This document shows positions 38,459 through 55,846 of a stretch of 64,000 nt of DNA, piece by piece. This DNA comes from Candidatus Sulfopaludibacter sp. SbA3 (GTDB lineage Bacteria > Acidobacteriota > Terriglobia > 20CM-2-55-15): positions 1 through 64,000 of the forward strand of contig CAMBFR010000004.1 of assembly GCA_945865815.1 (NCBI GenBank), given 5' to 3'. Position 1 is the stretch's first letter, and every line of letters begins with the position of its first letter. The translations under genes were made by a program, and so were the position numbers. The notes under the pieces were generated by a model. That model worked only from the letters and a program-made list of their open reading frames with translations, was not told the DNA's origin and did not search any database.

Positions 38459-38475
38459 AGATTCTCCCGTGCACG

Positions 38476-39573: not shown

Positions 39574-39584
39574 GGATTCCCTAT

Positions 39585-39886
39585 TTAGGCTGCGCCGAGG
39601 TGTAGGATCAGCGACATATTCCAGGGGAGGCATCCACACTTCTTTGTTCCCTTGGCTTCATCCACGGAGGCGACAGCGCGTCCCTTCTTCACTTCATTCA
39701 CGGCCCAAAGAAACAAGGCGAGGGCGTTTCCGACCAACTCCTCATTGGTCTTGATGCCCGCTCCCTTCACGTTCTCGATCTCTTGGGTCTTTTCCTCGAA
39801 CTTACCCAGAAGGTATCCAAATCGGGTTGCTTGTAATCCATGAGAGCGTTCCGAACCGACTCAGCCAGAGAGACCAGCAACGTCAC
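39585..39886 (-). pseudogene. small gene with a probable frameshift
   Basis: A GTG at 39886, overlapping the upstream stop as GTGA with AGGGGGGA before it, opens a frame reading MTLLVSLAESVRNALMDYKQPDLDTF. It stops after 37 codons. Near 39820 the sense continues in another frame, YLLGKFEEKTQEIENVKG..., to GNALALFLWAVNEVKKGRAVASVDEA, a pattern seen in small RHH-like proteins. The whole would be about 100 residues. Either one base was lost (decay or assembly) or these are two unrelated micro-ORFs; the coupling and continuous sense favour the first. Confidence 0.4.
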
Positions 39887-40812
39887 AGGTCCCCCCTATC
39901 GCCCCTCTTGAAGCTCAACCAGACACCGGGCCAGTCGTCGTGGAGGCGAGACTCTTTCTCCCAACAGTCAGCAGGCACGCGAACTAGCGTCGACCGGCGG
40001 TCACCACTATCTCCAAACGATCCAACACCTCTTCCCGCGAAGACGATTCGCTCAACCCCAGCGCGCTGATTTGCCCTGAATACAAGAAACCGATCATGAA
40101 ACAAGTTTCGCTCTGTCTTGGTCGTTGGATGGAGCTTGAATTCCCATTGAATGGTGGTCTCCCGGAATACTTGGTTTGCACGCTTAATCCCTTCAGCTCG
40201 GCTCCCTGGGAGGCTTGCCTCCCGTTCGCCGACATCCAGCGGAGACCAGCTACCGCTGCCGGTAACATGCGAAACGCCGTTCCGGTTTGCAAACAAAGCA
40301 AGCTTCCGCAAGGCAGGAGCGTTTCCGTCGGACAAGATGTATGGGTCGATGACATCGACTGTCCGGTGCGCCCAACACGCAAGTCTTAACGCCTCAAGAG
40401 CCTGTTCTCCGACCTTGCAGTGAGCGTAATGAAAGGGAAGCGTAGAAAACTCGCTCCGCTCCCATTCGGACATTGGAATCGCTTTCGGCGCGAGTCTGGC
40501 CGTTTCTCCGGGAGGAATTCTGGCCGTTGGGATCATTCCGCTTTCAATCAACATTTTCAGCTTCCGAAGTCGATCTGTCGGCAATCGTTTTTTTTCCAGA
40601 GTCGCTATGTGCACACGAACGGAGACGCAGGCGTTTCTATGGTTTTCCATCAATACACCGAAACACCCAAGGTAGCGGAGCAGCGCATCCCATCGCCCTT
40701 CGTTGGGTTCCTTTAGCCCGTATTCCACTAGCTGGTCGATCGACCATGGGATGCGGACGAACAGACTGCCGAACTCCGCTTCCTTGCTTAGGTATCGTCC
40801 GAGAGTCACCAC
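39883..40812 (-). CDS. HDRF-motif protein, possibly PLD-like
   Basis: The 309-residue protein overlaps the AAA ATPase gene and starts at GTG. I do not recognise a named family. The C-terminal half has VDVIDPYIL (about 150) and LFHDRFLVFRANQRAGVERIVFAGRGVGSFGD (about 235-270), an arrangement reminiscent of one half of a phospholipase-D-like domain. HDRF takes the place of HxK, so it may be a degenerate PLD or a different nuclease-like fold. Paired with a DUF3696-type ATPase, it looks like the effector half of a two-gene defence unit embedded in the CRISPR operon. Confidence 0.55.
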   Translation of the reverse strand: MVTLGRYLSKEAEFGSLFVRIPWSIDQLVEYGLKEPNEGRWDALLRYLGCFGVLMENHRNACVSVRVHIATLEKKRLPTDRLRKLKMLIESGMIPTARIPPGETARLAPKAIPMSEWERSEFSTLPFHYAHCKVGEQALEALRLACWAHRTVDVIDPYILSDGNAPALRKLALFANRNGVSHVTGSGSWSPLDVGEREASLPGSRAEGIKRANQVFRETTIQWEFKLHPTTKTERNLFHDRFLVFRANQRAGVERIVFAGRGVGSFGDSGDRRSTLVRVPADCWEKESRLHDDWPGVWLSFKRGDRGDL

Positions 40813-42338
40813 CTCATCCTTTCAAGCCACTCGCCATACAACAAATTGTCTCGCTGAGGAAAAAATCCATCGGGCCAGGGATCCATGAATTCTCCGTCCC
40901 CAGCCATTCGAATTCTTTGCACGCAGGTAACGCCGTTCTCGACATTCACGGCCAGGAGCGTCACATTTTCCGGATCGAGAACCCCTTCCCGCACTAACTG
41001 CTGGGCCGCGAGAACTAAGTACTCGCTATGGGTCTCGAGGATTGCCTGCGGATTTGCACTTCCGGCTTGTGGGGCACTCCGGCGCAAAGGCTCAGAAAAC
41101 AACCGCAACAGCTCCACCTGCCAATCGGGATGCAGGTGGAGTTCCGGCTGCTCTACAAGCAGGGTCTGCGGCTTGGTCCCCCCAAGCACCGCCGCCCATT
41201 CGGCCAGGATTGGAAGCAGTTGACTTACTCCGAAACCTACATCGGGTACGCCGACAGTTGCGCCGTGGGGACGTGTGTCTAAAAGGAAGAGTTCCACGAG
41301 TGCATCCAAAGTAAGCAATGGCCGGTTGATTACTTGGTAAGGAACGCGCATCGACTGCAGCATGTTGTTGATCGCTTCCTCCCGATCCGGAAATCTGAAG
41401 AGGATGTCACCCAGCCGTTCTCCGCGCGAACCTACCTCATCGTCCGTGGAACTATCGCGGGCATAGATCCGCTGGCCCGGAACACGGGTTGGGCCGATGT
41501 AACGCAGGTTTGCGAACTTCTTCGCAGATCCGAAAAAAAGGTCGTCAATCTCCCGGGTGAGTGCCGCGACGAACGGAGAATCCTCACTAAGCAGCGCAGC
41601 GTGGCTTTGTGTCCAACTCTCCCGGGCCTGCTTCAGTTCGGTGCCAAGCGTCTCCGCGGCCTGAACGGTAGACAGCCGGCCAGCACGCTTCTCCGCCTCG
41701 ATTATTTGCTCCACCGTGGGAACACTCCCCCTCTCGATACGCCGCGTATTCTCTGAAGGGTCCAAACGAATGACCGGGATGGCTGATCTCCGCTCCTTGT
41801 CTGCAAAGGCGCGCCAGCCAGCCACAAGGGGCGACGCCTGTTCAGCTTCCGAGTTTGGTGGTGCTATCTCAAGGAACGGGATCTCGATCTGGCGAGCCCT
41901 GTCATTGGTAACTTGGGCGCCGCCGAGGAGAATGGTTCCATTCCGGCCCCTCAGCGTGCAAGCTGTGAGTGTTCCAGCTTCGGGCAATCGGTTTTCATCA
42001 ATGTCCCCGGTAGCGTTCAGCAAATAATCCGCTTCCCATGTAAAGTCTGCGGACTTCTCACCTTCATCCCATGAAATCCCTATTTCCACGGGAACGTTAC
42101 GGTGTCGATGAGCAATGTTTCCGAATCTGCCCAACGTTACCAATCGCCCGGCCGGGCGGAGTTCGATGACGGCAGCAGGGCCGGATTCCCAACTCTGACG
42201 CAGCATGAGGAGAGCCTGCAGGATCGACGATTTCCCGGCAGAGTTCCCCCCCAACATAATCGTTAGGGGTCCCAGGGGAATCCGGGTTTGCTGGTCCCCA
42301 AAGCGCTTAAAGTTTCTCAGCCGAAGTTCAGAAATCAC
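40806..42338 (-). CDS. AAA ATPase with DUF3696-like C-terminus
   Basis: The 510-residue protein is an SMC/ABC-type ATPase of the AAA_15/OLD-like group: RLRNFKRFGDQ, Walker A GGNSAGKSSILQA (about 31), an ABC-like signature region VGFGVSQLLPILAEW (about 370), Walker B LLVEQPELHLHP (about 395) and ETHSEYL. The C-terminal FMDPWPDGFFPQRD element is typical of DUF3696 ATPases. Such ATPases often work with a nuclease partner, as in Gabija- or retron-like systems. Here the gene starts 4 nt after the TIGR03986 RAMP and overlaps the HDRF-motif gene. Confidence 0.75.
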   Translation of the reverse strand: MISELRLRNFKRFGDQQTRIPLGPLTIMLGGNSAGKSSILQALLMLRQSWESGPAAVIELRPAGRLVTLGRFGNIAHRHRNVPVEIGISWDEGEKSADFTWEADYLLNATGDIDENRLPEAGTLTACTLRGRNGTILLGGAQVTNDRARQIEIPFLEIAPPNSEAEQASPLVAGWRAFADKERRSAIPVIRLDPSENTRRIERGSVPTVEQIIEAEKRAGRLSTVQAAETLGTELKQARESWTQSHAALLSEDSPFVAALTREIDDLFFGSAKKFANLRYIGPTRVPGQRIYARDSSTDDEVGSRGERLGDILFRFPDREEAINNMLQSMRVPYQVINRPLLTLDALVELFLLDTRPHGATVGVPDVGFGVSQLLPILAEWAAVLGGTKPQTLLVEQPELHLHPDWQVELLRLFSEPLRRSAPQAGSANPQAILETHSEYLVLAAQQLVREGVLDPENVTLLAVNVENGVTCVQRIRMAGDGEFMDPWPDGFFPQRDNLLYGEWLERMRW

Positions 42339-42342
42339 GCGG

Positions 42343-44604
42343 TCAACGCCATTTCATTTGAACGTTTCCAAGGTCGCCACCAGCTGTGACAACTACGGTG
42401 TATTTCTTCCCGACGGCGGCATCCTCCGGAGCCACTCCGAAGGCAACAACGCCTATTGCGGCGGGGCTCAGGACCTTGGCTTGCCACTTTCCTTTCTTGG
42501 ACAGCCCGGTCAGTTCGACCTCGATTCGGGTTCCACTCTTGATGCTCTGGGAGCGTGGCGCTTGGGTTGCTTCCCTCCAGGCCCCAACAGACTGCTTCTG
42601 CGTCCCGGCATCCCGTGTGGCGCTTCCAGGTTCAGCCGGCGGTCCGGCCAGCGTAATGGCGTGTCCTGCGGCACGGGCTTCCACTGCCCAGCGTTCAGTC
42701 GTTCCCGCCGACGGCAATGCGCGGCCGGCCTGTTTGGCGCTCTGGAATTCATTCCGGACGACAGGATCGTCGATGCGCATGTGCAGGCGATGCGGACTAC
42801 TTTCATCAAGCGTATGCGCCAACGCCCGGAGTTCGAAAAGCTCTCGGGAGTGCTTCCAGCCTCCCGGAATGTGGTTTTCGTCAGCGAACTTCTCCATGAG
42901 GCTCTCAAATTCCGCGCGAGCCTCATCGCCATTGCTAACCCCGATCTCCCGGACGTTCTCCAGGTTCATCTCAGCCACTTCGAATCGGCAGCGGCCATAA
43001 CCAAGAGATCGAGCCATTCCGAGCGTGTGCCGGGCTTCGTTGTCCTTGCCGAAATCCAAAGCCCAGAGCAGTGCTCCCAGTTCCGCCCTGCGTACGTTGT
43101 GAAGGCGAAGTCGTAAGAGGAAGGAGGTGCTTTCCGGTAACGGATTCAGCCGGGACGCGACGCGCGACACGTCCATCGCGCGACCATCGCCACGGGTCGG
43201 AAGAGCCGGACTGACGGGACCGGGCTGGGGCCGATACCGCTTCCATCCACGAACGCGAACATCTGAATCCATCCACGTCTTCCATTTCGGCTTGTTATTT
43301 AGAGCAGCCGGCTCGGCACCGGGTGCCGCCGGCCCCTGCTCGATATATGCCGGATAGTAACTAGCTTTGGGCGAACCAAGGACAACGTCGACCAAGGCCA
43401 CCGGTTTCGGATTGCCTTCCGCGCGAGCGAGGCCAAAAGAGACCCGCCCTTTGAGCAGCCGACCTTTGAATGTATCCGATTCCGAAGTCTCATCGATTCC
43501 TGGCGGGACATGCCCGAACAGCGTCTGGGCGAAGTCGAGAATGCCGTCGGTCTTCTTTAGCGCGGGTTGGCAGTTCAAGACTCCGTCCTTCACGCTATGG
43601 TCATATGGCAGACGAAACATCATGGCGAGACCAAACGCGCGGAGTTCGCCATTGGGATGCGCCAAAAAGAAGACAGGAACTTTCTTCCCCTCGTCGTAGT
43701 TCGATTTCCAGTACTCCCACTCCTCATTCGGGAGGAACTCGCGGCCGCGTGCATTCTGCTGGCCGCGGTCACTATGAACGAATTCAAAGCCCTTGAAGAT
43801 GTCGCTGCTGACGGGGACAGGTGTGCCGCTGCCATAAAACACGAAATCGTGATGCTTAGCCTGCCCACCGCCACGGCGAGGAGGTTGGTCCGGTCTCCAT
43901 GATGAAGGCTGGCCGGTAAACACCAGTGTCGCAGCAGTTGATCCCGGGCCAACAACTCGACCGAAACCGTAAGGTAAGGACACGCCCTGAACTGGTCGCA
44001 GTTTCTCTACTTCAACCATCACATCCAGGCTCGCCTTTCCCCATGCCCTGTACTTGCTCACCGAAGACTGGCGGTTGCCGGGAGAGAATCCCGGTACCTG
44101 CCGCTCCTTCGCGTAGGACATAAGGCGGCGATACTCGATCTTCGCGAAGTGGCATGGGGTAATCGTTGCTACCCTCTCCGATCCCTCACCTCGTTGCAGC
44201 CACCCTGCGATAACTTTCGGCATCGGTTGGCGGCTGCCATCCGGGGCGGACATGATCTCAGCCATGTGCTGGCCGTACACATCCTGATTGTGAAGGTCGC
44301 GCACACCGTAGCGGTGATCGTTGAACCGCGACATCCAGCCGAATGTTGCGATTTCAATGATGTTGCGGATGGCGCCGCGAATCGAACTTCCAGGAATGGC
44401 ATACACCGCGTCGGGCGTGCGAAAGAATTCGTCCTTATTACTTCCTCGGACGAAAATTGGCGTCTCGGCAATAAGCCTCAGGTCAATGGTTCCCGATAAG
44501 CCGTCCTCGAAGGGTAAGTCCTGCGAAACGGCTCCCTGCCACTCCGGAAGGAAGACATGCTCTGAGAGCGGTACGAAACCATAAGGTGCGTGAACAGAAC
44601 TCAT
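42343..44604 (-). CDS. type III RAMP protein, TIGR03986-like
   Basis: From the ATG at 44604 (GGGGGG upstream) the protein has 753 residues. The RAMP features are the N-terminal LRLIAETPIFVRG strand, GSSIRGAIRNIIEIATFG (about 75, the RAMP helix after the glycine loop) and RHTLGMARSLGYGRCRF (about 530, the glycine-rich terminal loop). The length suggests two or more Cas7-type folds. The C-terminal ~100 residues form a small beta domain (GTRIEVELTGLSKKGKWQAKVL) that may bind RNA, joined by a low-complexity linker. TIGR03986 proteins accompany III-D-type loci. ATGA overlaps the Csx19-like gene. Confidence 0.8.
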   Translation of the reverse strand: MSSVHAPYGFVPLSEHVFLPEWQGAVSQDLPFEDGLSGTIDLRLIAETPIFVRGSNKDEFFRTPDAVYAIPGSSIRGAIRNIIEIATFGWMSRFNDHRYGVRDLHNQDVYGQHMAEIMSAPDGSRQPMPKVIAGWLQRGEGSERVATITPCHFAKIEYRRLMSYAKERQVPGFSPGNRQSSVSKYRAWGKASLDVMVEVEKLRPVQGVSLPYGFGRVVGPGSTAATLVFTGQPSSWRPDQPPRRGGGQAKHHDFVFYGSGTPVPVSSDIFKGFEFVHSDRGQQNARGREFLPNEEWEYWKSNYDEGKKVPVFFLAHPNGELRAFGLAMMFRLPYDHSVKDGVLNCQPALKKTDGILDFAQTLFGHVPPGIDETSESDTFKGRLLKGRVSFGLARAEGNPKPVALVDVVLGSPKASYYPAYIEQGPAAPGAEPAALNNKPKWKTWMDSDVRVRGWKRYRPQPGPVSPALPTRGDGRAMDVSRVASRLNPLPESTSFLLRLRLHNVRRAELGALLWALDFGKDNEARHTLGMARSLGYGRCRFEVAEMNLENVREIGVSNGDEARAEFESLMEKFADENHIPGGWKHSRELFELRALAHTLDESSPHRLHMRIDDPVVRNEFQSAKQAGRALPSAGTTERWAVEARAAGHAITLAGPPAEPGSATRDAGTQKQSVGAWREATQAPRSQSIKSGTRIEVELTGLSKKGKWQAKVLSPAAIGVVAFGVAPEDAAVGKKYTVVVTAGGDLGNVQMKWR

Positions 44605-45095
44605 AGTGCCCCCCAACCCGTGAACCGTGAAACATACAGACTCCACGGTCTGACACCATTGTCTTGATCCGGGCCGCGAGTCCAAAAGGTCTTGTAATTG
44701 AGTTTCAGATCAGGCTCTGTGGAGACGAAAACATCTTCGAGTGCCAAAGCTTCTTCCCCGACTCCCTCACTGATGCGTGTCCATCGCAACCGGCCGCCAT
44801 CACGCCAAACATGAATGCTACTAGTCTCCGATTCTTGAATCTCGGCGGACAGAGCAAACGCACACTCCGCGGCGCCTGGAGCAGACACTAAGGCTTCTTG
44901 CTCGGTGACGTCGTACCACTTGCCTTGAACACACCGAAGGACGCTACTGGGGAGGCATACCCAGGCTTCCGCAGTTCTCGATAGTTCGATCGCCACCTCA
45001 TCCACAGACGGATTTCCACCTGACACAGACACATGCGCTAACCCGACATTGCCAACCTTGGCGAGCCAATCCGCGGTGCTCATCGGTTCATTCAT
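44601..45095 (-). CDS. csx19: Csx19-like type III-D accessory protein
   Basis: From the ATG at 45095 the protein has 164 residues. The sequence WVCLPSSVLRCVQGKWYD and SIHVWRDGGRLRWTRISEG is beta-rich, and its size and context fit Csx19 (TIGR03984). The assignment is mainly positional: it lies between two RAMP genes of a III-D-like operon and overlaps both. Function in the complex is unknown; a non-canonical small subunit is possible. Confidence 0.55.
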   Translation of the reverse strand: MNEPMSTADWLAKVGNVGLAHVSVSGGNPSVDEVAIELSRTAEAWVCLPSSVLRCVQGKWYDVTEQEALVSAPGAAECAFALSAEIQESETSSIHVWRDGGRLRWTRISEGVGEEALALEDVFVSTEPDLKLNYKTFWTRGPDQDNGVRPWSLYVSRFTGWGAL

Positions 45096-46530
45096 TTGCC
45101 ACCTTCTTGATCCAACTCCCATCGTCACTCCAGGCGACTTTACCTCTGCAGAACCCGTGCCCGCGGGCAGCGCCTGCGCCTATCGCGAGTTTGCCTTTGC
45201 AGAGATCATCGAGCGCTTTTTCGAACGCCGCGATGGAGTGACGCGGAGGCTTTGATTCACCAAAGTGCGTATCGATCACGACTTCCAGGGCAATGCTTCC
45301 ACCGTAGAGCGGTCTCTCATCGAACAAAGCGCCATCCATCGGTCCCTGGGTGAATCGATCCAGACTTACGTGATCCAAGCCGCCGGACCTTGGTTGTTCG
45401 ATCCAACCATCAGAGATGAAGACTCGTCCGGCAGTCCTGGGAAAAGACGCAGTCTCGCTGTTGTTCTCATTTCCGAACCACCAGAGCACGCCATCCCACT
45501 CCGCGAGAGCTTCCCTGATCTCAAGCCATGCCTTCGGACTCTCCGGAACTTCGACGAACGTACCCTCAAGCCGACGTCCGTGGAATGCGAGCCGATGCCG
45601 CAAAGCGCCCTTGATGCCGGATGCCGGAATTGAATGCTGCGATTCCACCACTTCTCCAGTGCCGGCCTTCCACACAATCCGCGCCTCTGTTACCGGCAAC
45701 GCCTCGTAGGCGCGGTCTCCACGTAAGTGTTCGTCGAGAACGGGTTCGCCACCGCCGAAGAACCAGAAGTCTTCGGGATTCAAAGTGACCGTGGCCTTTA
45801 CCCAACGGTCTTCGCCTTGCGGCTTGAGTGCGGAAGGCCCACGAAAGCGCAGCACGCCGTCGGGTATCGGACGGGACAAGTCTCGAGGAAGGTTTCTAAA
45901 GCGACTCCGGTCCTCCGATTTGCTCAGGTCGAATTCGTCCTTCCAGGAATCAACAGTGGCAAACGTACCCAACCCCCGGCGAGACTTCCCTCCGAATCGC
46001 AGAACGCCCGAATCGAGGCGCGCAAGGAGGCTGTCCAGTATCGTGGCCCCCTCCTCATGAACAAGAAGTTCGAACGTGAAGCGGGCTCCGGCGGGAACCG
46101 CGAGTTCGTCAAACTTTCCCCGTCCATCAACGACGCCGCGAGGGTTGATCCGGGCGTGATCACGTTTCACTCCGGCTCGCAGGCACGACAGCACGGGATC
46201 ACCCGTGAGGTTGGATTCGGAGTCGCACCGAAACGGCGTGGGGAGATTGTTCCGATCGTGTACCTGTCCCCAGGAAATCTCAACCGTCGAACTTTCGCCT
46301 CCGTTCTGATCCTGATAGCCGAACAACTCTCTCGCTCGATTCTCCGGAAATGCGTGCCGCAGCACCCCGGCAATGCTGCTGCCGGGCAGGGCTGGAAGGC
46401 CGTTTGCGTCGACGACAAACACGGCATCCCGAAGGTCATCCTCCGAACCAGATGAGACCAAGAAGGCCGTCCTGAATTCAATCGTGACGCGAGCTACCGA
46501 AAATATGAGCCCACGAGCCGCCTTAATCAC
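45088..46530 (-). CDS. double-RAMP (two Cas7-like domains) protein
   Basis: From a GTG at 46530, 8 nt inside the upstream gene's end and preceded by AAGGGGG, the protein has 480 residues. Two RAMP units are visible: residues about 10-200 with LPALPGSSIAGVLRHAFPE and LRFGGKSRRGLGTF, then about 245-480 with HSIPASGIKGALRHRLAFHG and LAIGAGAARGHGFCRGKV. Each unit has the GSS.KG.LR helix and the G-rich loop. It likely supplies two backbone segments contacting the crRNA. It is a short version of the Cas7 fusions that give rise to Cas7-11-like proteins. Confidence 0.78.
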   Translation of the reverse strand: MIKAARGLIFSVARVTIEFRTAFLVSSGSEDDLRDAVFVVDANGLPALPGSSIAGVLRHAFPENRARELFGYQDQNGGESSTVEISWGQVHDRNNLPTPFRCDSESNLTGDPVLSCLRAGVKRDHARINPRGVVDGRGKFDELAVPAGARFTFELLVHEEGATILDSLLARLDSGVLRFGGKSRRGLGTFATVDSWKDEFDLSKSEDRSRFRNLPRDLSRPIPDGVLRFRGPSALKPQGEDRWVKATVTLNPEDFWFFGGGEPVLDEHLRGDRAYEALPVTEARIVWKAGTGEVVESQHSIPASGIKGALRHRLAFHGRRLEGTFVEVPESPKAWLEIREALAEWDGVLWWFGNENNSETASFPRTAGRVFISDGWIEQPRSGGLDHVSLDRFTQGPMDGALFDERPLYGGSIALEVVIDTHFGESKPPRHSIAAFEKALDDLCKGKLAIGAGAARGHGFCRGKVAWSDDGSWIKKVANE

Positions 46531-48025
46531 GGTTTTCCCCCTTGCCCGGACGCACAACCCGAGCAGCAAGCATTTCCAGTCGAATGGCGAGTTGCTCGGG
46601 CGGTTGCCGCTTCATCCAACTCATCATGAAATCCCGAGCTGAGTTCTTTCCTGCGCGTACGGCCCAGCGGAGTGCACGGGCTCCACCGTGTTGGGCAGAG
46701 GCGCTTCCCTTCTCTCTGAGAGTCGGGGCAGGACGGGTGCCCCGGTCGAACTGCTCATTGAGGTATTGAGCGCCGTCGGGTTTGCGCTGAGCTGTCTGAG
46801 CGAGGGTCCTGATCCAACCCCATTGTGCGTTTCGGAGCTTGAAGTGGGCAAAGTCGTTAGCATCTCTTGTGATTTCCAGCAAGGCTTCTTCGCGGCTGCG
46901 AGTCTCACTGGCCCGCTGGTGAAGCCAGATTGCCAGCGGATCGATGATTGCCTTTTCGGTCGCAGTGGGTGGATCTCCTGGTTTCTCGAAGGTCACGCTT
47001 CTCAGTTTCAGCAAGGCAGGTTCGACATACACCTGCCCCAGACCATCCTGACGAAAGTCACCCACGCCGCTGCGAGTCGTCTCGACTACAGTCTGCCCTG
47101 AGACCTCAGGCGCCCTGTCGTTGCGCTCAAAAACCATCACAGACCCTGCGGCAATTACCTGCCGATCGAGGTCATGACGCCGGCGATGTCCGTTGAAAGG
47201 TGAGTATCGCCGTGTTCGAAGAAAAGTCCTTTTGAGATCGAGCGTCCATCCGTTGGGCAGCCCGAAGTCTGCCGCCTCCGGCAACAACCTCACCGCACCG
47301 GTATTCCTATTCCGAAGCGCAAGATCGGATGCGCACAGAAATATAGTGCGGTCTCCGTTGAACGAGCGTTCCATCGGAGCGGTTTCCGAGATCTGTACAC
47401 GTTCAATACTCACTTCTCCAAACTCTGCCGACCGAGAACGCCCGATGAAGATCGGCCTGCCCATCAGTGCGGCTTCGATGTTGTGAAGATGCTGGATATC
47501 CTCCGCATCAACCCTCGCGACGAAAGTCTGACCACCTGCCAAGGACTCGATGCCGAACAGCAAACCTTCCCGCGCCTTTCCGTGCTCGTCTACGGATGTG
47601 CGCATCGTTGAGCGGCGATCGCGGCTAAGAGTGCGCACCGAACGGACAGTGTCTCCCGCCGCGTCCAATACCCAGCCCGACCGGTACTGTTCATACTGCG
47701 TCGTCGATTCTCTGTCGACTAAGGCGAGAGTCACATCAGGCGCGTCTTCTTCGGCGCGTTTCTCTCGATGAAAAGCGAGCGGAGCAGGAATCGCGGGAAC
47801 CCCATCCAGCTCGGGCACGCCGTTGCCAAAACGAACCGCGCCGGAATGGAACATTGCAAAAGCGTCCTCTCTGCTGAGCCCCTCCCGGTAGAGTTGCTCG
47901 GCTGCCGCGCCAAGAAGTGCGGCCCCAGGGATGTAGTCCAGTGAGGATGCGCCGCCCACACTCGCATTTCGCTCCGTCAGGACGACGTCGCTCTTTAGGG
48001 TAATCTTCAGCGTCATAGAGGTCAT
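46523..48025 (-). CDS. csx10: Csx10-like RAMP protein (Cas5-like)
   Basis: The 500-residue protein starts MTSMTLKITLKSDVVLTERNASVGGASSLDYIPGAALLGAAAEQLY. The pattern of a beta strand, a disordered loop and TSLDYIPGxALLGA is typical of Csx10 (TIGR02674). Csx10 is thought to hold the crRNA handle like Cas5. A further RAMP element is LMGRPIFIGRSRSAEFGEVSIERV (about 190). A helical C-terminal section (about 390-500) is reminiscent of a fused small subunit. ATGA couples it to the upstream Cas7 gene. Confidence 0.78.
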   Translation of the reverse strand: MTSMTLKITLKSDVVLTERNASVGGASSLDYIPGAALLGAAAEQLYREGLSREDAFAMFHSGAVRFGNGVPELDGVPAIPAPLAFHREKRAEEDAPDVTLALVDRESTTQYEQYRSGWVLDAAGDTVRSVRTLSRDRRSTMRTSVDEHGKAREGLLFGIESLAGGQTFVARVDAEDIQHLHNIEAALMGRPIFIGRSRSAEFGEVSIERVQISETAPMERSFNGDRTIFLCASDLALRNRNTGAVRLLPEAADFGLPNGWTLDLKRTFLRTRRYSPFNGHRRRHDLDRQVIAAGSVMVFERNDRAPEVSGQTVVETTRSGVGDFRQDGLGQVYVEPALLKLRSVTFEKPGDPPTATEKAIIDPLAIWLHQRASETRSREEALLEITRDANDFAHFKLRNAQWGWIRTLAQTAQRKPDGAQYLNEQFDRGTRPAPTLREKGSASAQHGGARALRWAVRAGKNSARDFMMSWMKRQPPEQLAIRLEMLAARVVRPGKGENRD

Positions 48026-48687
48026 GGCGTCACCAAGTGCGCATCGACTCGGCCGAAACCACGGTTACGGTGACTTCCCAAGGTGCGCAGAAAAAGCCTT
48101 ACGGATTCATCAATGGCGTCCCACGGCGTTGCATTACTGCCGGTGATGAAGGCGTGGAGGGTCATAGGCACGACCACTTCGATAGTTCGGAGGGTCTGGT
48201 CTTTGGCAATCCCGGTATCCCTGCAGATCGCGGTTTGGGAAACATACCCGTAGAGCTCGGGAGTAACTCTCGACTCGTCCTCTCTGTCACGCCAGCGAGC
48301 CCAACTGGACCAGTCGTCCTGCTCGTTGCGTGTTGCCCCAAGGTGGGCGCTTGAGAATCGCAGGTCACCCTTCTTAGTTCCGAAGCGTGCCTGCTCCAAG
48401 GCCCGTACCCGCTTGAACTCATTGTGCTCAGGTGATTCGCCCTGCTTGGGGGGCCCGGTCCCAAAGAGATCTTCCAACGTTGCTGAATCCAGAACGCCAG
48501 CCGCTGCTCCAACCCGGCATGCCTCACGCACCAAGCCCTTGACTGTACGGCCCGGCAGAAACGGCAGTTTGTCTTCCTTACCTTTCCGAACGACCGCGTC
48601 CGCGGTGACACCATCACCACGGCCCGTCCCGGGGTGCCACCAGGTCAGAAGGTTGAATGCCAGAGTTCGCTGAACGGATGGACTCAT
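48022..48687 (-). CDS. Csm3-like Cas7 backbone protein
   Basis: The 221-residue single-domain RAMP protein has LPFLPGRTVKGLVREACRVG (about 45, the glycine loop and helix), a central KKGDLRFSSAHLG segment with the aspartate position used by Csm3/Cmr4 to cut target RNA, and LRTLGSHRNRGFGRVDAHL at the end. It likely polymerises along the crRNA and cleaves target at 6-nt steps. It is preceded by GGAGGAC and overlaps cas10 by ATGA. Confidence 0.82.
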   Translation of the reverse strand: MSPSVQRTLAFNLLTWWHPGTGRGDGVTADAVVRKGKEDKLPFLPGRTVKGLVREACRVGAAAGVLDSATLEDLFGTGPPKQGESPEHNEFKRVRALEQARFGTKKGDLRFSSAHLGATRNEQDDWSSWARWRDREDESRVTPELYGYVSQTAICRDTGIAKDQTLRTIEVVVPMTLHAFITGSNATPWDAIDESVRLFLRTLGSHRNRGFGRVDAHLVTP

Positions 48688-49592
48688 GTCGTCCTCCAAA
48701 GGCGTAAGTCACCGGTGCGCTTTTCAGATTGCAGATTGATCCACATCAACGCGTCCGGAATGGGAGTTCGCATATCACTCCAGCCGGTCTGAACGCCAAC
48801 GTCAAGATCTTGAAGAGCCCTATCAAAGTGTTCCATGGCTCCCTCGTCTGCAACCTCCCTTAGCCGTTGCCATCGTGCTTTCGCCCTCGTCTCGGACACT
48901 CGGCATTCACCAACCCAGTTGCGAAGCGCTCCACGAGGCAGGTTGCTCGCTGCGGCGCACAAGGTATCCAGCTTCGGAAGGTGTTCCAAAAGCCACGGTC
49001 CATGAGCGAGTACGTGATCACTTCCGCATTTGAGCTCGGAATCTCTGATCTCCTTCCATTTCAAGTCCGCATCGGCGGTGGTAACGCGATGGAACAGCAG
49101 ACCGCTCCTCTCGCGGCCAAGTTCTTTCTTTGTGGCTCTGCAGAGATCCTCCGCAAGTGCGTGGGCTTGCGCGAAAGGCCACCCGGACTTCACGAGCGCT
49201 ATCCCCGCGCTTGCCGTAATCCCCCTGGTTTCGGGATGTTTGTCTGCCTTCATCCTGAAATCGCGAAGATAGAACTCCGCAAACGGTATTGCAAATTTTC
49301 CATGCACAATGACCGTCAGGTCGTCGCCGCCCAGAACGATAGCGCGAGCCTGTATCCACTGAGCATCGTCTGATTCCGGATGATTCACCAAGGCGTCAAA
49401 GGCGGCTTTTGCCGCGCTCTCCGTGACGGTGCGCAGGGAAGCAGAAAATTTCTTTAACCCTGCGAGATCATTCCCATACTTCAGCACATGCTGGCCGACT
49501 CCGTTACCGTCGATGTGAATGACGGCAATGTATCCCTCGTCGAAGAGGTCGGCATCTTCGATAAATTTTCGATTCTCACTCGGTGGAAGCAA
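48684..49592 (-). CDS. cas10: Cas10, C-terminal part with GGDD palm (split by an in-frame TAG)
   Basis: This part is 302 residues. AVIHIDGNGVGQHVLKYG (about 22-40) and IVLGGDDLTVIVHG (about 85-98) are the two metal-binding strands of the Cas10 cyclase palm, and GGDD is intact, so it should be able to make cyclic oligoadenylates from ATP. It is in the same frame as the N-terminal part at 49596-50081, separated only by TAG and one codon (ATT). The TTG start used by the ORF track has no suitably placed ribosome-binding site. I therefore read 48684-50081 as one 465-residue Cas10 gene interrupted by an amber codon. The C-terminal ~100 residues are helical (D4-like). Confidence 0.82.
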   Translation of the reverse strand: MLPPSENRKFIEDADLFDEGYIAVIHIDGNGVGQHVLKYGNDLAGLKKFSASLRTVTESAAKAAFDALVNHPESDDAQWIQARAIVLGGDDLTVIVHGKFAIPFAEFYLRDFRMKADKHPETRGITASAGIALVKSGWPFAQAHALAEDLCRATKKELGRERSGLLFHRVTTADADLKWKEIRDSELKCGSDHVLAHGPWLLEHLPKLDTLCAAASNLPRGALRNWVGECRVSETRAKARWQRLREVADEGAMEHFDRALQDLDVGVQTGWSDMRTPIPDALMWINLQSEKRTGDLRLWRTT

Positions 49593-49595
49593 AAT

Positions 49596-50081
49596 CTAAC
49601 GCAGCGAATCTCCGTCCCTTTTGAAGCTTGCAAGCTTCTCTCGCACGATCCGATCTTCGAGCCCGTCCTTCTCTCCTATCCGCACTGCAGGGAGACCCGT
49701 TCGACCGCTGCGGTTGGCCAGCGGACCAGCAACCGGCAGATCGGGAGTTAGGACGTTCCGTGCATCGCCAAGCTTCGGATAGACGTCCCTCATGTTCTCG
49801 GCCCATGCCTGCACAATCTGAAGCCCCGGAGCACGCTGGGATACAAAAAAAGGCCAATGGTTTGCAAATGCCTGGAGATTCTCGGCTCTATCGAAGAGCA
49901 TCGTCGCGCCTCCTGCGGCCGCAAAACATTCTTTTGCGTGACATTGTCCCGCAAGCTCCTGAATCTCTTTGTCGAGCTTGACGATGATATTGCTGCCGCC
50001 GCAGAGCTCGCGCAGGCGGTCGGACTGGAGAATCCAAGCCTGAATACCCTTTGCTTCCGTTCGGTAAAAGAAATCAGCCAT
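49596..50081 (-). CDS. cas10: Cas10, N-terminal part (ends at an in-frame TAG)
   Basis: The 161-residue part begins MADFFYRTEAKGIQAWILQSDRLRELCGGSNIIV, the start of HD-less Cas10 and Cmr2-type proteins (KGIQ.YI..SDRLRE..GGS). No HD nuclease domain precedes it; only 143 nt separate it from cas6. It contains a beta strand ECFAAAGGATMLFDRAENLQAF that belongs to the first palm-like domain. It stops at TAG (49596-49598), after which the reading continues in frame. GAGGG lies near the ATG. It is first in the effector operon. Confidence 0.78.
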   Translation of the reverse strand: MADFFYRTEAKGIQAWILQSDRLRELCGGSNIIVKLDKEIQELAGQCHAKECFAAAGGATMLFDRAENLQAFANHWPFFVSQRAPGLQIVQAWAENMRDVYPKLGDARNVLTPDLPVAGPLANRSGRTGLPAVRIGEKDGLEDRIVREKLASFKRDGDSLR

Positions 50082-50224: not shown

Positions 50225-51103
50225 ATGTTCGTCAGTCTAGCCGCAGAAGTTGAGATCTTGCAAGAGACAGTCATTCCTCTCGCACATGGCGAGGCCATGC
50301 ATGCGGAATTCTTACGCCGTGTGGCGAACCTCGATCCGGCGGTTGCGACCCACCTTCACGGAGAGGCAGATGGGAGACCACGCCCCTATACGCTATCCGG
50401 ACTTCAGGTCGAACAGCCGGTCGTTAGAGATGGACGGGTCTCTCTGCGAACAGGAGACAGGGCGTGGTTCCGTCTAACCGCGATGGGGGAGTTGCCGTGT
50501 CAGGCGCTTCTGGCAATGTCGGAGTCTACGGATCGGTGGCTTATCCGGGGCAGGGGGTTCGAGAGTGAGGCTCACGTACGGCGATGGTGCGCGCACGCTG
50601 AAGAGCATCCCTGGGCAGGAATGGTAAGCACGAAAGAGTTGCAGGAATCTGCATGGGCGGCGGCGGAATCTGAACCGAAGGGATCGCTTCTAGTCTTTCA
50701 CAGTGCGACGGCGTTTGAAGAGTCGGATAAGGGATGGGCCTCCGGGATGCCGCTGCCGGTGCCCCGTCTGGTGTTTGGAAGTCTGAGGCGGCGGGCGCTC
50801 GAATGCACGTCTTTCGGTGAGCCGGCCAACGCGGCAGAACTCATCGAAAGGCACATTGCTCTCGGCCGGTTTGGGCCACTCTTGTCGCAGATACTCTTCT
50901 TCGAAAAGCACAGGTTTCAGCGGTCCGGGTTTACCGGAGAATGCGAGTTTCGTTTTGACCGCGAATTGCCTGAGCCGATTCGGGTCTGGTTTCACCTGCT
51001 CGCGAATCTGGCCTTCTATAGCGGTGTTGGCCGGGAGACCAGTTGGGGCATGGGACAGATCCGCCGCGAACCTGAGGACAAGTTTTCCTATCGCGGTCCG
51101 TAA
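50225..51103 (+). CDS. cas6: CRISPR repeat endoribonuclease Cas6
   Basis: The 292-residue protein has an N-terminal HGEAMHAEFLRRVANLDPAVATHLHGE (about 20-47), which matches the Cas6 L-alpha region and carries candidate catalytic histidines. The C-terminal loop SGVGRETSWGMGQIR (about 265-280) is the Cas6 glycine-rich motif. It cuts pre-crRNA inside the repeat; the GCGG-GCAA-CCGC hairpin of this array ends 8 nt before the spacer, exactly the expected cut site. It is first in the plus-strand operon and divergent from cas10. Confidence 0.85.
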   Translation: MFVSLAAEVEILQETVIPLAHGEAMHAEFLRRVANLDPAVATHLHGEADGRPRPYTLSGLQVEQPVVRDGRVSLRTGDRAWFRLTAMGELPCQALLAMSESTDRWLIRGRGFESEAHVRRWCAHAEEHPWAGMVSTKELQESAWAAAESEPKGSLLVFHSATAFEESDKGWASGMPLPVPRLVFGSLRRRALECTSFGEPANAAELIERHIALGRFGPLLSQILFFEKHRFQRSGFTGECEFRFDRELPEPIRVWFHLLANLAFYSGVGRETSWGMGQIRREPEDKFSYRGP

Positions 51104-51150
51104 GAACTCGGGTGAATCACGCGTTATCTCTATATAGAAGGGAGATGCAC

Positions 51151-51714
51151 GTGGACGATTCATCGAACAACAACCAATCGGCGCTGGACCGGCTGCGAGG
51201 CGGGGACGACGTTCAGGACGATTCCTCGGAAACGGGGCTGGAGCGGGCCAACCAGGAACTGCAGGTACGGGCCGATCCGAGGCGCGTAACGCCCGGAAAG
51301 ATTGTCTGGCCGTGGTCGCGCGAGGCGCGGGCCCGTTCGGCGGCCCGGGACTTGAGTGTCGAAGCGCAGTTGGATATTTTCAAGGACGATCTCCGCGCCA
51401 TTCGGATCGCGCGCGAAGTGCTCAGCCGGGCGGCGACGATGCGGGCCGTTCAGGCGGCAGAGACGGCCATCTTCGAGATTCGGTGCCTCGGTGAGAGCGC
51501 GCGTTTCGCTGTCGTGAACCGCACGCACCTCGAGATGACGCGGCAGTTTCTTTTGCAGCTCGAAACGATCGAAGGATTTCGCGGACGCGTCACACCGGAA
51601 ATTCTCGACGCGCTGAAGGAACGGGCCCTGTCCGAGTTTTCCACGCGAATGAACCGGGCGTCGAAGTCGGACTTCGAATTCTCGAAGGACGACATTCTCA
51701 AGATCAAACCCTGA
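51151..51714 (+). CDS. unknown helical protein between cas6 and RT
   Basis: From GTG 51151 (GGGAG six bases upstream) the protein has 187 residues; ATG 51145 is an alternative. Residues 1-35 are polar and probably disordered (DDSSNNNQSALDRLRGGDDVQDD). The rest is nearly all helix (ARDLSVEAQLDIFKDDLRAIRIAREVLSRAATMRAVQAAE...). I do not recognise a family. Its fixed place between cas6 and the RT, 11 nt before the RT start, suggests a role in spacer acquisition from RNA, or a small-subunit-like role. Confidence 0.55.
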   Translation: MDDSSNNNQSALDRLRGGDDVQDDSSETGLERANQELQVRADPRRVTPGKIVWPWSREARARSAARDLSVEAQLDIFKDDLRAIRIAREVLSRAATMRAVQAAETAIFEIRCLGESARFAVVNRTHLEMTRQFLLQLETIEGFRGRVTPEILDALKERALSEFSTRMNRASKSDFEFSKDDILKIKP

Positions 51715-51725
51715 GCGGCGCAGCA

Positions 51726-52865
51726 ATGACAGACCTTCTCAAGATTGCGGGAATGGCTGAGGTCCCCGGCGTCGTCTTGGCAACCGAACTTGACCTCCGC
51801 GGCGCGTGGGAGCGGGTTCACAAGAAGGCCGGAATGCCGGGCGCGGACGGCGTTACGACCAGCCGTTTCGGCCGCTCGGCCGAAACCGCCTTCAGCAATC
51901 TCGAAGCAGATCTCGCAAACGGACGGTACCGGCCGTTGCCGCTTCGAATGGCGCAGCTTGAAAAGAAGGCCGGAGGCGGCCTGCGGCTTCTTCTGGTTCC
52001 GCCGGTGGTGGACCGTGTGGCGCAAACCGCCGCGGCGCAATGGCTCGGCAGGAAGTGGAACCCCGCCTTCGATCAGGCCAGCTATGCCTATCGCCCGGGC
52101 ATGGGTGTCCGCGATGCTCTCCACCGGCTTGGCGAGTTACGCGATCAAGGATTCCGTTGGATTCTCGACGCGGACCTCCGGTCCTTTTTCGATTCGATCG
52201 ATCACGATCTTCTCCTGGCCCGGCTGCGGCGCTGCCTCGGAGAGCGTTCGCCGATGGCCGGATGGATACAGTCCTGGATCCGCGCCACCGTGTGGGACGG
52301 CGCCGAGCTGTTGTGCGTGGAGCGCGGCGTCCCGCAGGGCTCGCCGCTGTCCCCGATCCTCGCGAACTTCTACCTGCACGAATTCGACGCGCGAATGCGC
52401 GCGGCAAAGATGCATCTCATCCGGTATGCCGACGACTTCCTTCTGCTGGCGCGAACCCCGTTCGAACTGGAGGAAGCGCGGACGCTCGCAAAGGACGTCT
52501 TGAAGGACTTGAATCTCGAACTGAACGACGAGAAAACGCGGACGGTGACCTTCGAGAGCTGCTTTCGGTTTCTTGGAGCGGAGCTGCAGAAGGACTCGAT
52601 CCTGTTGCCGTTCGAAAAGAGAAAAGAACCGAAGCGCCCTGCCTACATCGCGCCGGTCATGCCGCCCGCCCTGCTGCGGGCGTTTCGGGCCGGGGATTTG
52701 AAGGCGTCACGGCCACTGGTCTGGAACGGATCGGCCGGAAGGATGCGCGGACCGGAACCGGCGCCGCCGGCGCCACCGCAACGTTCGAAACCGAAGGCGC
52801 ACGAAGTTCTGGCGGGCGCGACGCGCACGGCTTCGTTGAGCTTGTTGAAAGGGAGTGGGAGATGA
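51726..52865 (+). CDS. CRISPR-associated reverse transcriptase
   Basis: The 379-residue protein has RT motifs in order: GADGVTT (about 38), YRPLPLRM, ILDADLRSFFDSIDHDLL (motif A, about 145), GVPQGSPLSPILANFYLHEFD (about 200), RYADDFLLLA (catalytic YADD, about 240), LNLELNDEKTR and FRFLGAEL. No maturase domain X or endonuclease follows, so it is not an intron protein; the C-terminus is Pro/Ala-rich. Such RTs act with Cas1-Cas2 to copy RNA into spacers. It overlaps cas1 by ATGA. The RT and Cas1 are usually fused in type III systems; here they are separate. Confidence 0.88.
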   Translation: MTDLLKIAGMAEVPGVVLATELDLRGAWERVHKKAGMPGADGVTTSRFGRSAETAFSNLEADLANGRYRPLPLRMAQLEKKAGGGLRLLLVPPVVDRVAQTAAAQWLGRKWNPAFDQASYAYRPGMGVRDALHRLGELRDQGFRWILDADLRSFFDSIDHDLLLARLRRCLGERSPMAGWIQSWIRATVWDGAELLCVERGVPQGSPLSPILANFYLHEFDARMRAAKMHLIRYADDFLLLARTPFELEEARTLAKDVLKDLNLELNDEKTRTVTFESCFRFLGAELQKDSILLPFEKRKEPKRPAYIAPVMPPALLRAFRAGDLKASRPLVWNGSAGRMRGPEPAPPAPPQRSKPKAHEVLAGATRTASLSLLKGSGR

Positions 52866-54028
52866 GCCGGGAAGAGACTTCATTGGTGGTGAATCTTGCG
52901 GCTGGAGAAGGCTTCGGGCCGCATGAGGAAAACCTCCGTCTGCGGCGTCTTCAGGCGGTGGACGCCGCCGTGCGCGGCAGCTTGGGAAGCGCGAACACGC
53001 GATTCCTGCACATCACAGAGCAGGGATCCATGCTTCGCCGCTCGGGCGAACGCGTGGTCGTGACGAAGGAGGACGCCAGGCTGCTGGAGATTCCGTTGAT
53101 CAAACTGCAGGGAATCCTCCTGTATGGGAATGTTCAGGTCACAACGCAGTGCATCGGCAGTCTGCTCGAAGAAGGCGTGTGGGTCAGCTTCCTGTCGCGT
53201 GGCGGCAGGTATCGCGGCCGGTTGCAGCCGCCGCACGAGCGCGGAGGCCGGTTGCGGCAAATGCAGTGGCATCGCTCCAAAGACGCGGCGTTCTGCCTCC
53301 GGTTCGCGCAGGCCGTGGTGCGGGGCAAGATCCTCGGGCAGAAGCTGGTCGCCGCGGCGTATGCCAAGAACTATCTGGCGGAGACTCTCGGTGAGGGACA
53401 TACCGTTCTGCGGGATTCGCTGGAGCGGGTCGACTCCGTGCAGAGCCTGGACGAATTGCGCGGGGTGGAAGGCAATGCCAGCCGCGCGTACTTCGATTTG
53501 TTCCGGCGGTGGAACCGGTCCGAGCTGCCATTCGAAGGGCGCCACAAGCGAACGGCGTCCGATCCCATCAACGCGCTGCTGAACCTGGGCTACACGCTGC
53601 TCACGAGAGAGCTGGAAGGATTGATCGAGTCCGCCGGCTTCGATCCAACCGTCGGCTTCTATCATCAGCCCGACGACGACCGGCCGTCACTCGCATGTGA
53701 CTGGGTCGAAGAATTCCGGCACGTGGTCGTGGACCGGTTGGTCTTGAGGCTCATCAACACCGGAAGCATTCAGGCCAGCCACTTTGAGGTTCATGAAGAC
53801 AAGGGCGGGATTCGTATCCGGCCCGAGGGACTTCGCAAGTTTCTCGTGGCGTATGAGAAAACCGTGATTGGCGCGGAGAGCGAAGAGAAGCAGGCCTTGA
53901 GGTTTCGAGCTGTCTTCCTCAACCGCCTGGCGGCGTTGCTGGACTCCGTGACGCGCGCGGCCGGGCCCTACCGGACGCATCTCGAAATGGCAGAGGAAAA
54001 TGCGGCAGGCGTCCGATGCTCTACATAG
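52862..54028 (+). CDS. cas1: CRISPR integrase Cas1
   Basis: From ATG 52862, overlapping the RT stop, the protein has 388 residues. The beta domain starts with FLHITEQGSMLRRSGERVVV and IPLIKLQGILLYGNVQVT, and the helical domain has GVEGNASRAYFDLF (catalytic Glu, about 205), GFYHQPDDDRPSLACDWVEEFRHVVVDRLV (about 265-295, catalytic His and Glu/Asp). It integrates spacers at the leader end of the array. The frame is open into the RT gene (to 52040), but this is an overlap artefact and not a fusion. An N-terminal extension of about 40 residues (SREETSLVVNLAAGEG) precedes the core. Confidence 0.92.
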   Translation: MSREETSLVVNLAAGEGFGPHEENLRLRRLQAVDAAVRGSLGSANTRFLHITEQGSMLRRSGERVVVTKEDARLLEIPLIKLQGILLYGNVQVTTQCIGSLLEEGVWVSFLSRGGRYRGRLQPPHERGGRLRQMQWHRSKDAAFCLRFAQAVVRGKILGQKLVAAAYAKNYLAETLGEGHTVLRDSLERVDSVQSLDELRGVEGNASRAYFDLFRRWNRSELPFEGRHKRTASDPINALLNLGYTLLTRELEGLIESAGFDPTVGFYHQPDDDRPSLACDWVEEFRHVVVDRLVLRLINTGSIQASHFEVHEDKGGIRIRPEGLRKFLVAYEKTVIGAESEEKQALRFRAVFLNRLAALLDSVTRAAGPYRTHLEMAEENAAGVRCST

Positions 54029-54291
54029 TTTGCTACGACATTTCTGATGACAGCGCAAGGACCCGAATGTCCGATAAGCTTCTGGATTTTGGCGTCCGCA
54101 TCCAGGAAAGCGTTTTCGAGTGCGTCCTCGATCCGTATTCGTACGTCCGTATGATGCAATCTTTGGACAAGGTTCAGATCGCCAAAACCGACCGGCTCCG
54201 CGTCTATAAGGTGTGCCAGACCTGCACGGAGGATATTCGCATCTATGGTCCCGGGGAAGTGACCTGTGACCCGGACTATTACCTGGTATGA
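54016..54291 (+). CDS. cas2: CRISPR-associated protein Cas2
   Basis: The 91-residue protein MLYIVCYDISDDSARTRMSDKLLDFGVRIQESVFECVL has the ferredoxin-like fold and the D (CYDISDD) position used as metal ligand. Cas2 bridges two Cas1 dimers and holds the prespacer. It overlaps cas1 by 13 nt and is followed by the leader and array. An EVTCDPDYYLV tail is typical. Confidence 0.92.
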   Translation: MLYIVCYDISDDSARTRMSDKLLDFGVRIQESVFECVLDPYSYVRMMQSLDKVQIAKTDRLRVYKVCQTCTEDIRIYGPGEVTCDPDYYLV

Positions 54292-54532: not shown

Positions 54533-55644
54533 GCGGCGAGATTGGAAGGCGGGCAACCGCACTGAAACTCAGAATCGGCGACGCATATCACTGAAGTATC
54601 AGCGGGCGGCGAGATTGGAAGGCGGGCAACCGCACTGAAACATGCTGGTTCCGCTTCGTGATGTTGAGCATATGTTGCGCGGCGAGATTGGAAGGCGGGC
54701 AACCGCACTGAAACAATACTCCCAGGCTTGTTCCACCTGAATAGACTGGCGGCGAGATTGGAAGGCGGGCAACCGCACTGAAACTCGGACCTGACATCCA
54801 CCTGTCCTTCATAACCCAAGCGGCGAGATTGGAAGGCGGGCAACCGCACTGAAACCAAGTAAAGCTTTTTTCGTACTCATATTTACCCCCCTGCGGCGAG
54901 ATTGGAAGGCGGGCAACCGCACTGAAACTCTTTTTCTGCTACTGGCATTAAGATTGTGCACATGCGGCGAGATTGGAAGGCGGGCAACCGCACTGAAACC
55001 GGAATCTAGACTAGCGAGGAAAACCTATCGCTGGCGGCGAGATTGGAAGGCGGGCAACCGCACTGAAACGCGCCAGTGAACGCGGTGAACGCGAAACGTG
55101 CATTGCGGCGAGATTGGAAGGCGGGCAACCGCACTGAAATAAGTCTTGTCATTTGCAAGTAGTCCTTTACTAGTGGGCGGCGAGATTGGAAGGCGGGCAA
55201 CCGCACTGAAACTCATCCTTAGTTGTGCTGTTTCCCTTGCTTTGGTTCCAAGCGGCGAGATTGGAAGGCGGGCAACCGCACTGAAACACAAGAACTGCGT
55301 CTCCGGGCGGTGATTCTGCCAAGCGGCGAGATTGGAAGGCGGGCAACCGCACTGAAACTTTCTTCCCTCTCTTCTTGAGTATATGACACATACGCGGCGA
55401 GATTGGAAGGCGGGCAACCGCACTGAAACGCGGCTCCTCCCGTGACAGCCAGCCACTCAAGCCAGCGGCGAGATTGGAAGGCGGGCAACCGCACTGAAAC
55501 TCTGCTCCATCGTATACATCGGGCATCTTCTCCCGGCGGCGAGATTGGAAGGCGGGCAACCGCACTGAAACTCATGGGTTCGATGTTGCCGGAAGAAGTT
55601 TGCCGCACGCGGCGAGATTGGAAGGCGGGCAACCGCAATGCAAT
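54533..55644 (+). CRISPR. CRISPR array, 16 repeats and 15 spacers
   Basis: The repeat is a 36-bp unit: GCGGCGAGATTGGAAGGCGG then GCAACCGCACTGAAAC. Copies begin at 54533, 54606, 54679, 54749, 54820, 54893, 54964, 55034, 55105, 55177, 55252, 55323, 55394, 55465, 55536 and 55609. Spacers are 34-39 bp, mostly 35. Copy 9 ends in T instead of C, and copy 16 is degenerate over its last ten bases (CAATGCAAT), marking the distal end. Each repeat contains GCGG-GCAA-CCGC, a hairpin with a GNRA loop, and 8 nt (ACTGAAAC) after it, the expected crRNA handle. Transcription runs from the cas2 side. Many track ORFs on both strands are artefacts of the repeat. Confidence 0.97.
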
Positions 55645-55846
55645 TCACGAATTGCGCGGCGATGACGGCGTGGATCGATCGGACGGATTCGAAGCGATTG
55701 CGGACAATCTGATCAATTTGGGGCGCCTTCTGGCCGCCCAAGCGGCGAACTGAAAGAAGATCCAGGCAAGAAAAGCCGGCGAATTCAGAGAGTAGGAAGC
55801 CGATCCAAGACGTCATTCTTGCCCCGGAAAATAACTAACCAGCCGG
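55645..55846. other. array-trailing non-coding region with coding remnant
   Basis: The 200 bases past the degenerate repeat read, on the plus strand, LRGDDGVDRSDGFEAIADNLINLGRLLAAQAAN and stop at 55753, which looks like the C-terminus of a real helical protein without its start. The rest holds nothing I recognise. The array may have grown into or been moved next to this remnant. Confidence 0.35.

What the first reader, a model, noticed from the sequence alone, without database searches (positions are those of the whole stretch)
51151..51714. Unknown helical protein next to RT-Cas1-Cas2
Neither a Cas2 nor an RT fragment, it has a disordered N-terminus and a long helical body. It is a candidate new component of RNA spacer acquisition.
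Basis: inference. Interest (0 to 1): 0.65.

Follow-up and report, generated by a model that had tools for sequence, protein, structure and literature searches.

The report
Orphan helical gene in CRISPR operon
A real but so far unique small protein-coding gene sits between cas6 and the reverse transcriptase in a bacterial CRISPR spacer-acquisition operon; no relative of it was found beside any other CRISPR reverse transcriptase examined, so it is at best a local add-on rather than a general part of RNA spacer capture.

Summary
The ORF at 51151-51714 (+) is real. It has a GTG start 6 nt after GGGAG, the best codon score of six frames, and lies 47 nt after cas6 and 11 nt before the RT. The operon is cas6-X-RT-cas1-cas2 followed by a 16-repeat array, divergent from III-D-type (III-Dv/III-D2-like) effector genes. 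X (187 aa) has an acidic polar N-terminus, a short basic Trp motif and a mostly helical body; the fold rests on a weak single-sequence AlphaFold model (pLDDT 61). X matches nothing in Pfam, NCBIfam or PADLOC, and only chance-level hits in PHROGs and PDB sequences. Nothing was found in plasmids, phages, viral contigs, GTDB contigs (pattern scan only) or overlapping sets of 101, 399, 277 and 25 related genomes. None of 19 other CRISPR-RT loci carries a homologue; 18 had at least 0.7 kb readable upstream of the RT. A locus-specific accessory role remains possible: CRISPR RTs lack a thumb, and this RT is unfused from Cas1 although its probable nearest relatives are fused. I favour that only slightly over an orphan passenger gene. 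Interest is modest.

The parts
51151..51714 (+). Gene X: 187-aa orphan protein (21.2 kDa, pI 6.0); acidic polar residues 1-48, basic Trp motif GKIVWPWSREARARSAAR 49-66, predicted helical body 70-174
   Evidence: no family hits; chance-level only
51140..51144 (+). Shine-Dalgarno-like GGGAG 6 nt before the GTG start of X
   Evidence: sequence
50225..51103 (+). cas6 (292 aa), first gene of the operon, 47 nt before X
   Evidence: Pfam CRISPR_Cas6 E=3.5e-13; PADLOC Cas6
51726..52865 (+). CRISPR-associated reverse transcriptase (379 aa), unfused, fingers/palm with YADD, no detectable thumb; C-terminal tail resembles the RT-Cas1 linker of fused relatives
52862..54028 (+). cas1, 4-nt overlap with RT (ATGA)
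   Evidence: Cas_Cas1 E=8.8e-87, TIGR00287, sequence; start codon inferred
54016..54291 (+). cas2, 13-nt overlap with cas1
   Evidence: TIGR01573 E=1.6e-17
54533..55645 (+). CRISPR array, 16 copies of a 36-nt repeat GCGGCGAGATTGGAAGGCGGGCAACCGCACTGAAAC (last degenerate, so leader is on the cas2 side), spacing 70-75 nt
48684..50081 (-). cas10 (GGDD present) interrupted by one in-frame TAG at 49596-49598
42343..48699 (-). type III-D effector genes: Cas7 48022-48699, Csx10/Cas5 with helical C-terminal extension 46523-48025, Cas7-2x 45088-46569, Csx19-sized ORF 44601-45128, TIGR03986 Cas7-insertion 42343-44685

Best explanation
X is a locus-specific accessory protein of this adaptation/processing operon. 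Shown: it is a coding gene within the gene string cas6-X-RT-cas1-cas2, tight enough for co-transcription. Inferred: its soluble, mostly helical body binds the RT or Cas1-Cas2 and helps hold or position the RT on the integrase. The need for such a helper is plausible here because CRISPR RTs have fingers and palm but no thumb (PMC8102632, PMC11014452), and in this locus the RT is not covalently joined to Cas1, whereas its probable nearest relatives are RT-Cas1 fusions. The step it would assist is priming/cDNA synthesis or handing the copy to Cas1. None of these molecular steps is shown.
For: Coding and operonic placement. RT is a CRISPR RT: it groups with the others against group II introns at 99/97 support, with fused RT-Cas1 as likely sisters at 85/81. 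Its C-terminal tail resembles the linker of fused relatives. The thumb is absent in solved and reviewed CRISPR RTs. Precedent for an uncharacterised gene carried with a working RT-Cas1 adaptation module: Marme_0670 in Marinomonas MMB-1 (PMC5576922). RT, Cas1 and Cas2 signatures look intact, so the module is probably alive.
Against: No homologue beside any other CRISPR RT examined, including two other unfused-RT loci of the same class (L039, L040) and two cyanobacterial ones (L063, L064). RT-Cas1/Cas2 modules work without it elsewhere. The window RT is a long branch, so its sister relation to fused RTs is not firm. No structural or interaction evidence; the model is of low confidence.
Confidence: 0.35

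Rival explanations
1. X is an orphan passenger: a recently arisen or captured gene that happens to have landed between cas6 and the RT and is co-transcribed, with no role in CRISPR immunity (or an unrelated defence/regulatory role).
For: No homologue in genome contigs, viral contigs, plasmids, phages, nor in searches of 101, 399, 25 and 277 related genomes (the few weak hits are low-complexity, stop-ridden or chance-level). Absent from 19 other CRISPR-RT loci. The genes just upstream of the RT differ from locus to locus (CARF-type, effector genes, arrays, four-helix-bundle gene).
Against: Codon usage is as native as that of RT and cas1 and the spacing is tight, which is unusual for a neutral insertion into a compact operon.
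Confidence: 0.33
2. X is a diverged effector subunit, the small helical Cas11 subunit of the III-D complex, displaced into the adaptation operon.
For: Small, soluble, mostly helical protein in a type III locus in which no separate cas11 gene was recognised.
Against: It lies in the divergent cas6/adaptation operon, not with the effector genes. The Cas5/Csx10 here has a C-terminal extension predicted all-helical (weak model), as expected if Cas11 is fused there as in III-Dv Cas7-5-11 (PMC11026444). No Csm2/Cmr5-type profile hit for X.
Confidence: 0.1
3. X works like the Avd protein of diversity-generating retroelements, or belongs to the TIGR02436/PF05635 four-helix-bundle family found next to some RTs.
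For: A true TIGR02436 four-helix-bundle protein (E=1.2e-25) lies 156 nt upstream of an RT-Cas1 gene on a Pseudanabaena plasmid (L066); PF05635 resembles Avd, an RT-system accessory protein (PMC10053308).
Against: X has no similarity to that protein (hhalign probability 0.2%) or to TIGR02436 or any Pfam family. Its model has three long helices after a polar arm rather than a compact four-helix bundle.
Confidence: 0.05

Closest known systems
Marme_0670 of the Marinomonas mediterranea MMB-1 RT-Cas1 adaptation operon (PMC5576922)
   Same: Gene of unknown function encoded together with RT-Cas1 and Cas2 and carried along in spacer-acquisition plasmids
RT-Cas1 and unfused RT/Cas1/Cas2 adaptation modules (Toro 2017/2018, Silas 2017)
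   Same: RT, cas1, cas2 in order before an array, type III effector, RT of the CRISPR/group II-like clade
   Different: None of 19 such loci inspected carries X; most relatives have RT fused to Cas1
Synechocystis type III-Dv / III-D2 system (PMC11026444)
   Same: cas10, Cas7, Csx10/Cas5 with C-terminal extension, Cas7-2x, a Csx19-sized ORF and Cas7-insertion genes; weak PDB sequence matches to 8s9t chains D and E
   Different: Cas7 and Cas5 are separate genes here; X has no counterpart named in that operon description; the Csx19-sized ORF was not matched to any family
Avd / TIGR02436 four-helix-bundle proteins
   Same: Small helical proteins encoded next to RTs; one lies upstream of an RT-Cas1 gene in L066
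   Different: No sequence similarity to X; different predicted helix pattern

Membership tests
General component of RT-type CRISPR adaptation modules | Homologue beside other CRISPR-associated RTs | tested here: not met
   19 other CRISPR-RT loci, 18 with at least 0.7 kb readable upstream of the RT: no homologue; 25 genomes chosen for RT-Cas1 or Cas1 hits searched whole: no credible match
General component of RT-type CRISPR adaptation modules | Encoded in the adaptation operon | tested here: met
   47 nt after cas6, 11 nt before RT, RT/cas1/cas2 overlapping
General component of RT-type CRISPR adaptation modules | Effect on spacer acquisition | not testable with these tools
   needs a spacer-acquisition assay
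Cas11 small subunit (Csm2/Cmr5 type) | Profile match to a known small-subunit family | tested here: not met
   no PADLOC, NCBIfam or Pfam hit
Cas11 small subunit (Csm2/Cmr5 type) | Small-subunit slot of the effector otherwise empty | tested here: inconclusive
   Cas5 C-terminal 150 aa predicted all-helical but at pLDDT 45; longer than the matched Cas5 profile region
TIGR02436 / PF05635 four-helix-bundle (Avd-like) | Profile match | tested here: not met
   no hit for X; no pairwise similarity to the L066 member
TIGR02436 / PF05635 four-helix-bundle (Avd-like) | Compact four-helix bundle fold | tested here: inconclusive
   single-sequence AlphaFold model with three long helices, mean pLDDT 61; no PDB fold match at E<=0.001
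RT or Cas2 fragment | Sequence similarity to RT or Cas2 | tested here: not met
   no RVT_1, Cas2 or maturase hit
Homologue of Marme_0670 | Sequence similarity to Marme_0670 | not tested

The most novel reading that the evidence does not exclude
X is a trans-acting helical subunit that replaces the missing thumb of a CRISPR RT, or bridges an RT that has split away from Cas1, forming a four-part RT-X-Cas1-Cas2 spacer-acquisition complex.
Probability: 0.06. Interest if true: 0.65.

Novelty: new variant of a known kind. Interest (0 to 1): 0.25.

Why it matters
CRISPR RTs lack the thumb that other polymerases use to grip template and primer, and how cDNA is handed to Cas1 is only partly understood. 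An operon with an unfused, fast-evolving RT and an extra helical protein would be a testable case of a helper subunit. Because the gene is unique to this genome in everything searched, it says little about RNA spacer acquisition in general unless relatives are found.

Tried and rejected
Homology: Pfam, NCBIfam, PADLOC, PHROGs, PDB sequences, plasmids, phages, IMG/VR, GTDB contigs and whole genomes of the class and phylum; the best genome hits (E about 1e-4 to 1e-3 per genome in 399 genomes) are at the level expected by chance, and the best one, inspected, was low-complexity antisense of a repeat-rich protein. Fold search of the weak model against PDB: only designed or coiled-coil helices, nothing at E<=0.001, treated as uninformative. 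Relation to the four-helix-bundle gene of L066: rejected on sequence. RT fragment, Cas2 fragment and shadow ORF of the antisense strand: rejected by codon scores and profiles. GTDB scan with Cas1 returned nothing because its patterns were too specific, so unfused-RT relatives in other phyla were not reached. An IMG/VR scan with an RT alignment returned 32 RTs, none with a Cas1 match nearby.

Full report
The feature. The ORF 51151-51714 (+) encodes 187 aa (P0001). It starts with GTG 6 nt after GGGAG and has the best codon score of the six frames, as good as or better than the flanking RT and cas1. The long antisense ORF is a mirror artefact. It is a real gene.

The surroundings. On the + strand the operon runs cas6 (50225-51103), X, RT (51726-52865), cas1 (from 52862), cas2 (54016-54291), then a CRISPR array of 16 36-nt repeats at 54533-55645 whose degenerate last repeat places the leader next to cas2. 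Divergently, on the - strand, lie type III-D effector genes: cas10, Cas7, Csx10/Cas5, Cas7-2x, a Csx19-sized ORF and a TIGR03986 Cas7-insertion protein. Weak PDB matches go to Synechocystis III-Dv chains (8s9t D and E). cas10 carries one in-frame TAG.

The protein. Residues 1-48 are polar and acidic (net -5), 49-66 form a basic Trp-containing segment, and 70-174 are predicted as three long helices. The model comes from a single sequence (mean pLDDT 61, pTM 0.34), so only the general statement 'mostly helical body, flexible N-terminus' is defensible. Fold search found nothing significant.

Relatives. No family matched in PADLOC, NCBIfam or Pfam, and only chance-level hits came from PHROGs and PDB sequences. 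No match in plasmids or phages. Pattern-based scans of GTDB contigs and IMG/VR found no relative, but these reach close relatives only. Whole-genome searches of 101 relatives, 399 class genomes, 277 phylum genomes and 25 genomes picked for RT-Cas1 or Cas1 hits (sets overlap) gave only X itself plus chance hits.

I collected CRISPR-RT loci from the class and phylum and from plasmids and inspected the sequence upstream of the RT in 19 loci other than the window's, 18 of them with at least 0.7 kb available. None carries a homologue of X. Upstream neighbours vary: effector genes, CARF-type genes, arrays, a metallopeptidase-like gene, and in one plasmid a TIGR02436 four-helix-bundle gene unrelated in sequence. 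X is therefore not a general component of RT-based adaptation in this sample.

What it could do. The RT groups with CRISPR RTs against group II intron RTs (99/97), as a long branch with RT-Cas1 fusions as likely sisters (85/81), yet it is unfused. Its C-terminal tail resembles the fused relatives' linker. Published work states that CRISPR RTs have fingers and palm but no thumb (PMC8102632; PMC11014452). A helical helper that positions the unfused RT on Cas1-Cas2 is thus reasonable, and an uncharacterised gene (Marme_0670) was carried in the MMB-1 adaptation module (PMC5576922). But two other unfused-RT loci of the class (L039, L040) and two in cyanobacteria (L063, L064) lack X, so unfused RTs do not need it. 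I give the accessory reading 0.35, the passenger reading 0.33, a displaced Cas11 0.10 and an Avd-like protein 0.05. The Cas11 reading is weakened because the Cas5 has a C-terminal extension predicted helical, though at low confidence, in line with the Cas7-5-11 fusion of III-Dv (PMC11026444).

Limits. No search reached metagenomes, and the GTDB scans were restricted to exact short peptides, so relatives in other phyla may exist. No interaction or functional data exist.

Verdict. Observation confirmed; the interpretation as a new component of RNA spacer acquisition is plausible for this one locus only and is not supported as a general feature. Interest 0.25.

Noticed in passing
window 49596-49598 (-): cas10 is interrupted by a single in-frame TAG (GATTCGCTGCGT TAG ATTTTG) between two otherwise contiguous ORFs with Cas10 homology and an intact GGDD motif: pseudogene, sequencing error or a split gene.
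   Followed up: partly
window 46523-48025 (-): Csx10/Cas5 has a C-terminal extension of about 85-150 aa predicted all-helical (pLDDT 45), possibly a fused Cas11 while Cas7 is a separate gene: a possible intermediate between III-D1 and III-Dv.
   Followed up: partly
L066 4440-4808: TIGR02436 four-helix-bundle (Avd-family-like) gene 156 nt upstream of an RT-Cas1 fusion on a Pseudanabaena plasmid; worth a systematic survey beside CRISPR RTs.
   Followed up: partly
L041 3044-3688 (-) and L062 8952-9479 (+): Zincin-like metallopeptidase-type genes lie next to two different RT-Cas1 loci: upstream in L041 (HELGH motif, read from sequence), downstream of cas2 in L062 (annotated zincin-like).
   Followed up: no
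window 52780-52870: RT and cas1 are split with an ATGA overlap; the RT tail resembles the linker of fused RT-Cas1 relatives, suggesting a secondary split of a fusion.
   Followed up: partly
window 36715-42338 (-): Downstream of the effector genes lie an ATPase-like ORF (40806-42338), a following ORF (39883-40812) and two CARF/Csx-like ORFs (36715-38130, 38476-39639), read by eye only: likely type III ancillary effectors or a neighbouring defence system.
   Followed up: no
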